Part shown: piece after piece, positions 14,195-33,233 of the stretch
Layout of the letters: the number at the start of each line of letters is the position of its first letter
Numbering within the stretch: the stretch's first letter is position 1
NCBI GenBank assembly: GCA_018798825.1
Contig: CP076355.1
Location: forward strand, 774,001-838,000
Direction of reading: 5' to 3'
Length of the DNA stretch: 64,000 bases
From: Ochrobactrum sp. BTU1
Lineage (GTDB): Bacteria; Pseudomonadota; Alphaproteobacteria; Rhizobiales; Rhizobiaceae
Program-made: the position numbers and the translations under genes
Notes under the pieces: generated by a model
What the model was told of the DNA's origin: nothing
The model's input: the letters and a program-made list of their open reading frames with translations, nothing else
Database searches by the model: none

Positions 14195-14260
14195 GTCGCG
14201 TCAGTCCTTCGTTATGTCAGAGCAGACGCGTGTGGCTTGATCCGTATATTTGCCGGTTGG
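14195..14260 (-). promoter_or_regulatory. metA expression platform (candidate)
   Basis: In the mRNA, TGTGGC at the 3' edge of the aptamer can pair with GCCACA further down, which competes with aptamer helix P1. Next to it, CGCGTC can pair with GACGCG directly before the metA ATG and would enclose the AAGGA ribosome-binding site. This fits control at translation initiation. The model is inferred from complementarity only. Confidence 0.45.
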
Positions 14261-14341
14261 CCACATCCTTCCATTTTAGGAAGTACCACCTTGCCCGGAA
14301 AGGCAGGTTGGCGTTGGGCGTCGCCCCAACTCTTGATGTGG
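14261..14341 (-). ncRNA. SAM riboswitch aptamer, S-box (SAM-I clan)-like
   Basis: In the metA leader, read on the minus strand, CCACATC (14341-14335) closes with GATGTGG (14267-14261) as P1. Inside lie ATCAAGAG, a P2-like hairpin with arms TTGGG and CCCAA, GCCAACC, a short P3 (TGCC/GGGCA), AAGGTGGTA and a P4 hairpin CTTCC/GGAAG. The order ATCAAGAG, GCAACC-like, P3, GGTGxTA, P4, P1 is that of the S-box family. It should sense S-adenosylmethionine and repress metA. The P2 arm is shorter than the standard S-box, so a variant class is possible. Confidence 0.75.
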
Positions 14342-14567
14342 TGCTACTTCTACTCAAACTCCGGCATCCTGGCAATAGTCTTTGAATGCATGTAACTCGG
14401 CTGTGATGGAATTTTATTCTAACAATTTAACGCGCAAAGTTGCTGCGGTTTAAAGTGCGTCCTCAAGACGAAAAGAACGGTCTTTTGCATCCGTGGAACA
14501 AGCCTTCGCATTACGCGTTTTTCTTTTATCCGCCTGTATGGTAAACTGTTGGTAAAGGGAGGGAGAA

Positions 14568-31474: not shown

Positions 31475-31524
31475 TGCAACCCCCGTATTGGCTTTCACCG
31501 TCATGCCATTAAGATGATAAAAAG

Positions 31525-31537
31525 ACTCATATTAATT
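31525..31537. promoter_or_regulatory. Shared 13-mer upstream of the haem receptor
   Basis: ACTCATATTAATT is identical to 23377-23389, but in the opposite orientation relative to its gene. See the finding on a shared iron-locus motif. Confidence 0.4.
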
Positions 31538-31809
31538 GGGAGGCTATATTAATCCTGATGGAATGAGTCAACTTTAATTATATAATGGTGGCCATGGCTA
31601 TGCGTACGCTTGTGAAATGTGAAGCATCGCAGCGCTTTAATCGATTAAAGAATTTAACACCTTCACGACTAGTTAAAGTTATAAGGTGAGTCTCAGGCAT
31701 GTAAATTTTTACAGGGTTATTAAAAAATTTCTTATTACATGATGATTGATGAAGAGGCTGCCGTTACAGCTTGATGGCTATTTAATAGTGTTGGTTTTAC
31801 ATGCAATAA

Positions 31810-31827
31810 TTTCAGTAAATACTGAAA
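31810..31827. promoter_or_regulatory. 18-bp perfect palindrome, candidate operator
   Basis: TTTCAGTA-AA-TACTGAAA. It covers the -35 position relative to a TATAAA at 31839-31844, so it could control the small RNA that ends at about 31938. Confidence 0.5.
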
Positions 31828-31850
31828 ATGAAAGTACGTATAAAGGGGTT

Positions 31851-31938
31851 GCTTTTTGATTAAGTGCCGTTATTGTCGGCCGCACTTGGAGGAGTATAGA
31901 GCCGCCCCAGCGCGTATATCGCTGCGGGGCGGTTTCTT
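31851..31938 (+). ncRNA. Candidate small RNA with a free GGAGGAGT segment (RNA-A)
   Basis: A compact unit with no reading frame. The hairpin AAGTGC/GCACTT (31862-31887) is followed by unpaired GGAGGAGT (31888-31895), then an intrinsic terminator with stem CCGCCCC/GGGGCGG (31902-31932) and a T-rich run. TATAAA at 31839-31844 would place the 5' end near 31851. The GGAGGAGT segment is complementary to all three loops of the next RNA. The 5' end is inferred only. Confidence 0.5.
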
Positions 31939-31983
31939 TATTTAAGCTATTCGTAAATGCATAACTGCATTGCGGTATCGCCT

Positions 31984-32011
31984 CTTGTAAGTGCCAAGCC
32001 TAGCACCTATT
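31984..32011 (+). promoter_or_regulatory. Heat-shock-sigma (RpoH)-type promoter of the CCUCCUCC RNA
   Basis: CTTGTA (31984-31989), a 16-nt spacer and CCTATT (32006-32011) resemble alphaproteobacterial RpoH promoters. The predicted transcript start, near 32018, falls right at the first hairpin of the small RNA. Confidence 0.55.
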
Positions 32012-32017
32012 TTGGGC

Positions 32018-32142
32018 TTGTTCAGTTTCACTCCTCCTCCCAGAAACTGAACCCTAAGCGCGGCACTCCTCCTCCCAGTCGCGCTTTTCAGATCAGCCCG
32101 CTGCACACTCCTCCTCCCAGTGCAGTGGGCGTTCTTGTTTTT
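32018..32142 (+). ncRNA. CCUCCUCCC-loop small RNA (cuckoo / CcsR / alpha-r14-like)
   Basis: Three consecutive hairpins at 32020-32052, 32056-32086 and 32097-32129 carry the same 13-nt loop, ACTCCTCCTCCCA. Their stems differ (10 bp perfect, 9 bp with one wobble, 10 bp with one wobble). The third is followed by a T-run and acts as terminator. This is the layout of the alphaproteobacterial stress-induced RNAs with CCUCCUCC anti-Shine-Dalgarno loops described in Rhodobacter and rhizobia. These titrate or block ribosome-binding sites and are driven by RpoH sigma factors. Three identical loops in one RNA is a rich version. A proline-rich frame across it is an artefact of the repeats. Confidence 0.88.
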
Positions 32143-32165
32143 AAGCCCGGCATTGTTTGAGATTT

Positions 32166-33233
32166 TTAATCTGATTCTGACAGAGGCTGGATTTTCGTGT
32201 TTTGCTCTTGAGCTAGAAGCGACCAGGCAGCAATGAACATTGCTGCAATCATCGGGCCGACGACAAATCCATTGATCCCTACCAGGGAAATGCCGCCGAT
32301 CGTCGAGATGAGCACGACAAAATCGGGCATACGCGTGCCTTTGCCAACCAATGGCGGACGCAAGAGATTGTCGATCAGGCCAATTATCAAAACGCCAACC
32401 AGTATCAGAATGATTGTCTGGCCCCACATACCGTTGACTGCAAACCATATGGCTGCAGGTCCCCACACAAGGGAAGCGCCGACAACTGGGAGCAGTGAGA
32501 AGATCGTCATCATCACACCCCACAGCAACGCGGCCTCAATACCAAGGAGCCAGAACGTAACCCCGCCAATCGTCCCCTGAACGAGTGCGATAATAATATT
32601 ACCTTTTACGGTGGCGCGAATGACGGCAGCAAACTTCTCGACGAACTGGTTCTTGTAATCTTCGCTGAGAGGGATTGCCTGACGGATCTTCTCACCCAGT
32701 TCCGCGCCATCGCGGAAGAGGAAAAAAAGCAGGTAGATCATGATGCCAAAGCTGATTAAAAACTGCAGAGTATTCTGACCGAAACTTACAAGGCGGCTCG
32801 CAAAAATCTGACTGCCTTGAAGAATACCGCCGGTAATACGCGTGCGCCATTCTGCGAAAGTGCCGAGTTCAAAGCGCACCATCCACTCTTCCAATGTATC
32901 GGGAAGCGCCGCCAATATGCGCGTAATGTAGCTGTTTAGATCAAATTCACGCGTACTCAGACGCTGATAGAGAGAGTTTCCCTCCTGAACAAGCGATCCA
33001 AAAATCAGCAGTGTCGGGATGATGACAAGGCAGATACACATGAGTACCGACAGAAAAGCTGCTATGTTTCTGCGACCACGCAACAGTCGGACAAGGCGTT
33101 GCTGTACTGGAAAAAAGATAAGCGCGAGGATTACTCCCCAGAGAACAGCCGAATAATACGGAATGAGCAGCCATGCGAAGGCTATAGTGACCAGAGCTAG
33201 AAGAATGTAGAAACTTGCGCGCTGGACGGACAT
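32166..33233 (-). CDS. AI-2E family transporter
   Basis: A 355-residue inner-membrane protein with about eight helices of the PF01594 family (YhhT/PerM/TqsA). Typical parts are YYSAVLWGVILALIFFPV, ALLWGVMMTIFSLLPVVGASLVWGP and LIDNLLRPPLVGK. Members export small molecules, autoinducer-2 in some cases, or act as Na+/H+ antiporters; the substrate here is unknown. The 3' end lies 23 bp from the end of the small RNA on the other strand. Confidence 0.87.
   Translation of the reverse strand: MSVQRASFYILLALVTIAFAWLLIPYYSAVLWGVILALIFFPVQQRLVRLLRGRRNIAAFLSVLMCICLVIIPTLLIFGSLVQEGNSLYQRLSTREFDLNSYITRILAALPDTLEEWMVRFELGTFAEWRTRITGGILQGSQIFASRLVSFGQNTLQFLISFGIMIYLLFFLFRDGAELGEKIRQAIPLSEDYKNQFVEKFAAVIRATVKGNIIIALVQGTIGGVTFWLLGIEAALLWGVMMTIFSLLPVVGASLVWGPAAIWFAVNGMWGQTIILILVGVLIIGLIDNLLRPPLVGKGTRMPDFVVLISTIGGISLVGINGFVVGPMIAAMFIAAWSLLAQEQNTKIQPLSESD

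What the first reader, a model, noticed from the sequence alone, without database searches (positions are those of the whole stretch)
31851..32142. CCUCCUCC-loop stress RNA with a neighbouring RNA that carries the complementary 8-mer
The RNA at 32018-32142 has three hairpins with one identical 13-nt loop (ACTCCTCCTCCCA) and an RpoH-like promoter whose predicted start falls at the first stem. Just upstream on the same strand, a second compact unit has its own terminator and shows GGAGGAGT, perfectly complementary to each loop, in a segment between two hairpins. RNA-A could be a natural sponge or a mimic target of the cuckoo-type RNA. Such a tandem pair is not one I know of.
Basis: partly seen in the sequence, partly recalled or inferred. 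Interest (0 to 1): 0.72.

Follow-up and report, generated by a model that had tools for sequence, protein, structure and literature searches.

The report
Tiny decoy RNA beside its sRNA
Next to a stress small RNA that switches genes off by covering their ribosome-binding sites lies a second, tiny RNA gene whose first eleven letters imitate such a site and stay unchanged between species, so it probably soaks up the small RNA; this is inferred from sequence only.

Summary
The CCUCCUCC RNA is Rfam ar14 (32014-32135), one of six copies in this genome. The upstream unit is a separate short gene, probably 31884 to about 31942. Its 5' end ACUUGGAGGAG is identical in 29 of 29 orthologues, while neighbouring spacer bases vary widely. 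A covariance model of the unit, holding no ar14 sequence, finds related units elsewhere; at E<=1.2e-4, 21 of 21 hits beyond the orthologues lie directly upstream of another ar14. One paralogue type (B) keeps a different complement of the same loop. One relative lost the neighbouring ar14 but kept the decoy. The decoy promoter shares a palindrome with one other recurrent site: 33 of 34 sites not at the decoy lie 25-26 nt before a MarR-type regulator gene. Best reading: a sponge (Shine-Dalgarno mimic) for ar14, possibly also AbcR. Transcription and sponging are untested; a third paralogue type (C) does not fit. Nearest precedents: CrfA/SisA-D, QrrX/Qrr, CJnc180/CJnc190.

The parts
31810..31827 (+). 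palindrome TTTCAGTAAATACTGAAA, likely operator of a MarR-type regulator
   Evidence: Pattern has 60 sites in 35 genus genomes, reversed control 0; 26 at the decoy, 33 before the MarR gene, 1 elsewhere
31849..31854 (+). -35-like TTGCTT of the decoy
   Evidence: conserved block before a variable spacer; function inferred
31871..31876 (+). -10-like TATTGT of the decoy
   Evidence: conserved GTTATTGT, 16 nt after TTGCTT; function inferred
31884..31894 (+). ACTTGGAGGAG, inferred 5' end of the decoy RNA; GGAGGAGT (31888-31895) is complementary to the ar14 loops
   Evidence: identical in 29 of 29 orthologues; for the 8-mer
31884..31942 (+). decoy (sponge) RNA, type A, ends inferred
   Evidence: covariance model R1 hits it with 78.3 bits (the window unit is one of the sequences the model was built from)
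31900..31943 (+). terminator hairpin and T tract of the decoy
   Evidence: folds, terminator-like scan hit
31958..31973 (+). TGCATAACTGCATTGC, LsrB-like box of the ar14 promoter
   Evidence: conserved upstream of ar14; likeness to the NfeR1 promoter from PMC10746234
31984..32012 (+). ar14 promoter: CTTGTA, 17 nt, CTATTT
   Evidence: read from sequence and conserved; function inferred
32014..32135 (+). ar14 small RNA with three CUCCUCCUCCC loops
   Evidence: Rfam RF02344, 76.6 bits; fold

Best explanation
The upstream unit is an independent gene for a very short non-coding RNA (about 55-60 nt) that works as an RNA sponge. Its 5' end, ACUUGGAGGAG, imitates a Shine-Dalgarno site and pairs in trans with the CUCCUCC loops of ar14 RNAs: the neighbour, the other copies in the genome, and possibly AbcR-type RNAs with a similar loop. 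While the loops are occupied, ar14 cannot cover the ribosome-binding sites of its target mRNAs. The decoy is switched by a MarR-type (GbsR/CudC-like) regulator encoded elsewhere beside mnhEFG, whose recurrent sites in the genus are its own promoter and the decoy promoter; ar14 has its own separate promoter. Shown here: the unit, its conservation, its tandem link to ar14, the shared palindrome. Inferred: transcription, start site, regulator binding, pairing in cells, direction of the effect.
For: ACTTGGAGGAG identical in 29 of 29 orthologues; pairwise identity 1.00 at all 11 positions in 27 distinct rows against 0.25-0.56 at -26 to -15. ar14 downstream on the same strand in 27 of 28 relatives with the unit, 137-152 nt from GGAGGAG to the first loop in 26 and 287 nt in one. 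Model hits beyond type A: 21 of 21 at E<=1.2e-4, and 26 of 34 at E<=0.1, lie directly upstream of an ar14. Type B units hold another complement of the loop: UGGGAGGA in 6 of 10, 7 nt in 4 of 10 (five of the ten measured). L014 keeps the decoy although the neighbouring ar14 is gone. Predicted duplex for two type A variants: -15.1 and -18.9 kcal/mol with the loop, -9.3 and -12.0 with the 16S tail. Joint fold of decoy and ar14 -80.5 against -76.2 kcal/mol apart, -74.0 for a control with the 7-mer changed. Shared palindrome.
Against: No expression data. In the isolated fold, with the U tail included, part of GGAGGAG pairs with that tail (paired probability 0.80-0.95 at its last three bases). Own AbcR copies are also predicted partners (-12.0 to -13.3 kcal/mol; up to -18.3 for the G variant). 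Type C units beside ar14 have hardly any complementarity to the loop. Own copy L003 and the LsrB-box ar14 copies L056, L060, L066, L068 have no unit that I could see. ar14 of 29 other-genus loci has no such neighbour, so sponging is not general for the family.
Confidence: 0.62

Rival explanations
1. The short RNA is a sponge, but mainly for other anti-Shine-Dalgarno RNAs (AbcR/ar15, or alphaR8/MmgR-type); its place beside ar14 reflects shared ancestry of the region only.
For: Own genome has three ar15 copies whose 5' loops hold CCUCCC with up to CCUCCUCCC; S. meliloti AbcR has CUCCUCCC in its loop (PMC8844928, passages). The G variant of the decoy binds one AbcR copy at -18.3 kcal/mol. Type B pairs with the alphaR8 core nearly as well as with the ar14 loop (-14.2 to -16.0 against -15.2 to -18.6). 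L014 keeps the decoy without its neighbour.
Against: Units recur beside ar14 copies at separate places in the genomes. For the window variant ar14 pairs better than AbcR (-15.1 to -17.5 against -12.0 to -13.3), and type A pairs weakly with the alphaR8 core (-10.9, -11.6).
Confidence: 0.15
2. The unit is a transcription module only (promoter, attenuator or insulator ahead of ar14); the RNA itself has no partner.
For: It ends in a terminator just before the ar14 promoter, and terminator stem and promoter boxes are conserved.
Against: A terminator or insulator does not need an invariant 11-nt segment ahead of the stem; L014 keeps the unit with no ar14 behind it; type B keeps complementarity with other letters.
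Confidence: 0.12
3. GGAGGAG is a true ribosome-binding site, of a leader peptide or as a ribosome decoy.
For: It is a Shine-Dalgarno-like sequence; a 29-codon TTG frame crosses it in the window (31856-31945); 3 of 27 distinct rows have a GTG at a usable distance.
Against: 24 of 27 rows have no ATG, GTG or TTG 3-14 nt after GGAGG (closer starts were not counted); the 29-codon frame starts in the -35 region and runs through the variable spacer; pairing with the 16S tail is predicted weaker than with the loop (in -14.1 against -18.7 for the L020 variant).
Confidence: 0.05
4. The RNA is a decoy for a GGA-binding protein.
For: CsrA-type proteins bind GGA in short RNAs (recalled).
Against: No CsrA match in this genome (PF02599: 0; 3 of 14 control genomes positive). 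Other proteins were not tested.
Confidence: 0.05

Closest known systems
CrfA, sponge of SisA-D (alphaR8) in Caulobacter crescentus, PMC12559287 (abstract, passages, section 7, part 1 of discussion seen)
   Same: One short RNA with a G/A-rich segment complementary to the anti-Shine-Dalgarno core of several sibling sRNAs in an alphaproteobacterium
   Different: Target family is alphaR8, not ar14; proven by experiment; in what I read no tandem placement beside each sibling; CrfA uses its second stem loop, here the 5' end
QrrX, sponge of Qrr1-4 in Vibrio cholerae, PMC9732341 (passages seen)
   Same: Sponge of a multi-copy sRNA family with its own dedicated regulator (QrrT)
   Different: qrrX lies beside qrrT between vca0830 and vca0832; here the decoy lies beside its presumed target and the regulator gene is elsewhere
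CJnc180/CJnc190 of Campylobacter jejuni, PMC8687705 (abstract and outline seen)
   Different: Cis-encoded pair acting in cis; here separate, same-strand genes and a short shared seed that could act on all copies
NfeR1 / alphar14, PMC10746234 (passages and section 5 seen)
   Same: The window ar14 belongs to this family; similar promoter layout with an LsrB-like box
   Different: No sponge of NfeR1 appears in the passages seen; no decoy-like 7-mer upstream in 29 other-genus ar14 loci
CcsR / CIN1 (cuckoo) locus, PMC10253847 (passages seen)
   Same: Same loop motif; two other ar14 copies here (L002, L006) do follow a DUF1127 gene
   Different: The window copy scores far below the CcsR1 cut-off (23.9 against 65.3 bits) and has no DUF1127 gene just upstream

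Membership tests
ar14 (RF02344), for 32014-32135 | covariance score over Rfam's gathering cut-off | tested here: met
   76.6 against 58.8 bits, full length 1-123
ar14 (RF02344), for 32014-32135 | three hairpins with CCUCCUCCC in unpaired loops | tested here: met
   feature as stated in PMC10746234
ar14 (RF02344), for 32014-32135 | blocks translation of mRNAs by pairing at the ribosome-binding site | not testable with these tools
   shown for NfeR1 in PMC10746234 (passages); not for this copy
CcsR1 (RF02791) / CIN1 locus | score over the CcsR1 cut-off | tested here: not met
   23.9 against 65.3 bits for the window copy in L007
CcsR1 (RF02791) / CIN1 locus | DUF1127 gene directly upstream | tested here: not met
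   none among window ORFs read between 31504 and 32014 (by eye); present at L002 and L006
bacterial sRNA sponge, for 31884-31942 | conserved complementarity to the seed of the target sRNA | tested here: met
   29 of 29 orthologues; type B by other letters; type C not
bacterial sRNA sponge, for 31884-31942 | transcribed as a stable RNA | not testable with these tools
   promoter-like and terminator-like parts only
bacterial sRNA sponge, for 31884-31942 | lowers activity or level of the target sRNA | not testable with these tools
   needs an experiment
MarR-type regulator, L105 891-1475 | Pfam MarR_2 domain | tested here: met
   32.3 against 27 bits
CudC choline regulator (NF047500) | equivalog cut-off | tested here: not met
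   45.7 against 218 bits

The most novel reading that the evidence does not exclude
In this genus several LsrB-box-class ar14 genes carry their own decoy gene in tandem, a hard-wired 'silencer plus antidote' RNA pair. The decoy has been duplicated or re-invented with the silencer, keeps complementarity to the loop in different registers (types A and B), and is wired to regulators other than the one driving the silencer; type A forms a nearly private two-target regulon with a MarR-type factor. Type C units, with a covarying stem and a fixed UUGGGGGCUU loop, would then be decoys that moved to another target.
Probability: 0.5. Interest if true: 0.76.

Novelty: new variant of a known kind. Interest (0 to 1): 0.68.

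Why it matters
Anti-Shine-Dalgarno sRNAs with several like loops (ar14/NfeR1, AbcR, CcsR) are widespread regulators in alphaproteobacteria, and how they are turned off is little known. A conserved decoy beside the sRNA gene, with a strict 11-nt mimic and a regulator with essentially two sites in the genus, gives a small, testable off-switch. Lineages that lost the sRNA but kept the decoy, or the reverse, are natural experiments on which RNAs the decoy serves. It also suggests looking for short terminator-bearing units with Shine-Dalgarno-like 5' ends beside other multi-loop sRNAs.

Tried and rejected
(2) A leader peptide. (3) A CsrA decoy. (4) A longer trans target of the whole 11-mer: CTCCTCCAAGT occurs in this genome once, opposite the decoy itself. 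(5) Decoys in other genera: of 30 ar14 loci examined (one per genome, from 30 of 61 genomes; 29 of them other genera, L190 the same genus), none has a 7-mer complement to the loop in the 400 nt upstream and one (L185) has it downstream; further copies in those genomes were not read. (6) The two model hits outside the genus (G320, G336) have no TCCTCC or GGAGGA in their loci and are taken as chance. (7) An RpoH promoter for ar14: not tested, not needed.

Led nowhere: a plasmid search with 31500-32200 gave one record, matching within ar14 only. The review of Brucella sRNAs PMC9751625, searched for five terms (sponge, ar14, cuckoo, CcsR, decoy), has none of them in its main text. The target of type C stays unknown.

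Rows left out or handled apart: one search used 27 aligned rows plus L014, one duplicate collapsed, 27 distinct; L029 was not in it. L035's type C-like unit was too degenerate for (17 aligned). In one search the rows L023 and L026 are shifted by one base on the 3' side; two of its five measures are not above shuffles (133 and 177 of 500). An earlier count said 25-27 nt for the regulator gap; the outputs show 25-26.

Literature: the novelty statement rests on search listings (10 of 17 listed; 15 of 25 listed) of an open-access library and on the papers named. The cuckoo-family paper is not held.

Full report
WHAT IS THERE. The downstream RNA is Rfam ar14 (RF02344) at 32014-32135, 76.6 bits against a cut-off of 58.8, with three strong hairpins and the same loop ACTCCTCCTCCCA. 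This genome has six ar14 copies over the cut-off. GGAGGAGT at 31888-31895 is the only plus-strand copy in the window. A short G+C-rich hairpin with a T tract follows.

CONSERVATION. A DNA search with 31820-31945 in 120 genomes (own included) finds the unit in own and in 28 of 34 same-genus relatives; the one other match, in another genus, is 25 bases long. In 27 of those 28 relatives an ar14 lies downstream on the same strand: 137-152 nt from GGAGGAG to the first loop in 26, 287 nt in one, L029. The remaining one (L014, genome G031) has the unit but no CTCCTCC on either strand of its 3.1 kb apart from the decoy's own complement; that genome has four ar14 copies elsewhere. In an alignment of 29 type A units (own + 28) ACTTGGAGGAG and most of the terminator stem are identical in all. 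In 27 distinct rows pairwise identity is 1.00 at each of the 11 positions, 0.64 and 0.40 at the next two, and 0.25-0.56 at -26 to -15.

WHERE THE RNA STARTS. Conserved blocks TTGCTT and GTTATTGT, separated by the variable spacer, lie upstream, and the invariant segment begins 7 nt after TATTGT. This is the layout of a promoter with its start at 31884. No start site was measured. With this start GGAGGAG is in the 5' end of the RNA, ahead of the terminator. In the isolated 60-nt fold the first eight bases are open, but the last bases of GGAGGAG pair with the U-rich tail with probability 0.80-0.95; the consensus fold shows the same. Whether that holds in cells, where the tail may be bound or shorter, is open.

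THE UNIT BELONGS TO A FAMILY TIED TO ar14. A covariance model (R1) was built from the 29 type A units only. In own genome it finds the window unit (78.3 bits) and a second unit (35.3 bits) directly upstream of another ar14 copy, L005. In 37 genomes (34 genus relatives and G043, G320, G336) it hits 30 of the 34 relatives at E<=0.1; the four without are G004, G025, G027, G032. Beyond the 28 type A units there are 34 further hits. All 21 at E<=1.2e-4 lie just upstream of an ar14 on the same strand; over all 34 it is 26, and 8 are not at an ar14 (L123, L128-L131, G320, G336, G012:C141). Three forms can be told apart. Type A: ACUUGGAGGAG. Type B, ten units (own L005, L113-L119, L122, L127): UGGGAGGA, the exact complement of the 3' half of the loop, in six, and seven matching bases in the other four (read; five of the ten measured). 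Type B units have a similar promoter-like layout but another inverted repeat upstream (by eye). Type C: a 5' hairpin with loop UUGGGGGCUU. 17 units were aligned; 92% of cells pair, 17 cells are changed on both sides and the covariation score is 0.547 (0 of 500 shuffles each), while the counts of pairs changed on both sides (133 of 500) and of further pair types (177 of 500) are ordinary. Two type C units measured have 4 and 5 exact complementary bases to the loop and weak predicted pairing, about -9.5 kcal/mol. So the sponge reading does not extend to type C as it stands. Not every ar14 of this promoter class has a unit: own L003 and, in the genomes without model hits, L056, L060, L066 and L068 show none by eye.

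TARGET. Predicted duplex energies for the type A 5' segment in two variants: -15.1 and -18.9 kcal/mol with the loop, -10.9 and -11.6 with the alphaR8 core, -9.3 and -12.0 with the 16S tail; a third variant gave -18.7 and -14.1 for loop and 16S tail. Type B separates less: -15.2 to -18.6 with the loop, -14.2 to -16.0 with the alphaR8 core. For the window variant the six own ar14 copies give -15.1 to -17.5 and the three own ar15/AbcR copies -12.0 to -13.3; for the commoner G variant (23 of 29 units) AbcR reaches -15.9 to -18.3. So AbcR RNAs are plausible second targets; tandem position is what favours ar14. A complement to the whole 11-mer occurs nowhere else in the genome. In shuffles of nine type A and B segments the observed match is reached in 5 to 885 of 20000; random 17-mers hold an 8-nt match in 137 of 200000.

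CONTROL OF THE DECOY. A palindrome at 31810-31827 has its centre about 65 nt before the inferred start. In 35 genus genomes the strict pattern TTTCAGTAWWTNCTGAAA has 60 sites (33 genomes), the reversed control pattern none. 26 sites are at the type A unit: 18 by locus, 8 by coordinates. Of the other 34, 33 lie 25-26 nt before the start codon, as called here, of one regulator gene (13, 20); protein identity to own is 88.7-99.5% over 194 residues in 32 of them and 74.5% over a partial match in L219; one site (L234) has no such gene. Of the 29 genomes with type A, three (G005, G018, G031) have only a near-match at the decoy. Genomes without type A keep the regulator site alone (G004, G025, G027, G032) or no strict site (G012, G013). 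With two mismatches allowed, own genome shows 10 forward and 13 reverse matches against 6 and 6 for the control, so weak sites mean little. The regulator is a MarR-type protein, resembling CudC but far below that family's cut-off, and in own genome sits beside mnhEFG. Whether it activates or represses is unknown. ar14 has a separate promoter with a box like the LsrB site of NfeR1 (PMC10746234 section 5).

RANGE. An exact pattern scan of named genomes gave 21 records, titled Brucella, Ochrobactrum or Rhizobiales bacterium (for example B. oryzae, B. grignonensis, B. pituitosa, B. tritici, O. teleogrylli); none is titled with a species known for brucellosis (it misses units with a changed stem and may leave out genomes near the window's). 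In 297 family genomes the model gave hits over E 0.001 quality only in this genus, plus two chance-level ones (strict filters). ar14 itself is in 60 of 61 family genomes, so the decoy looks like a young addition to an old RNA.

HOW IT MOST LIKELY WORKS. Regulator signal, then decoy transcription, then the 5' end occupies ar14 loops, then target mRNAs are freed. Only the parts and their conservation are shown. L014 argues for action in trans. Tandem order could help the two RNAs meet; that is speculation.

COMPARISON. [quoted passage not shown] I claim functional likeness and no homology. What I did not find in the papers seen is a separate decoy gene set in tandem at several copies of one sRNA family.

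SCORE. Strong comparative evidence for a real RNA gene that I found in no annotation or family searched; moderate for the sponge mechanism; none experimental. Confidence 0.62.

Noticed in passing
L020-L028, L031, L052, L061, L120, L121, L124-L126: Type C units: 5' hairpin with covarying stem and constant loop UUGGGGGCUU plus terminator, directly upstream of an ar14; in part of the genomes as a divergent second decoy-ar14 pair. Target unknown.
   Followed up: partly
L003 and L005, upstream of ar14: A long hairpin (CCCGTATCGCG...CGCGAT..CGGG) with a C-rich loop holding AAGCCCCC, the complement of the type C loop; not matched by Rfam.
   Followed up: partly
G000:C2:956191-956208, L239: A two-mismatch version of the palindrome lies 62 nt before an ar15 (AbcR-type) copy; such sites are near chance level genome-wide.
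   Followed up: partly
L128, L129, L131: Weak model hits not at ar14: a TTGGgaGAGGGG-like leader plus a terminator stem with AACCCCGCGCG, alike in three genomes; possibly another short RNA.
   Followed up: no
window 14236-14344 (-): SAM-I/IV riboswitch, 60.6 bits against 41.1.
   Followed up: no
L061 484-691 (-): Cobalamin riboswitch about 800 nt from a type C unit, 141.8 bits.
   Followed up: no
L002, L006 (own genome): Two ar14 copies follow small DUF1127 genes, the CIN1 layout described for CcsR.
   Followed up: yes
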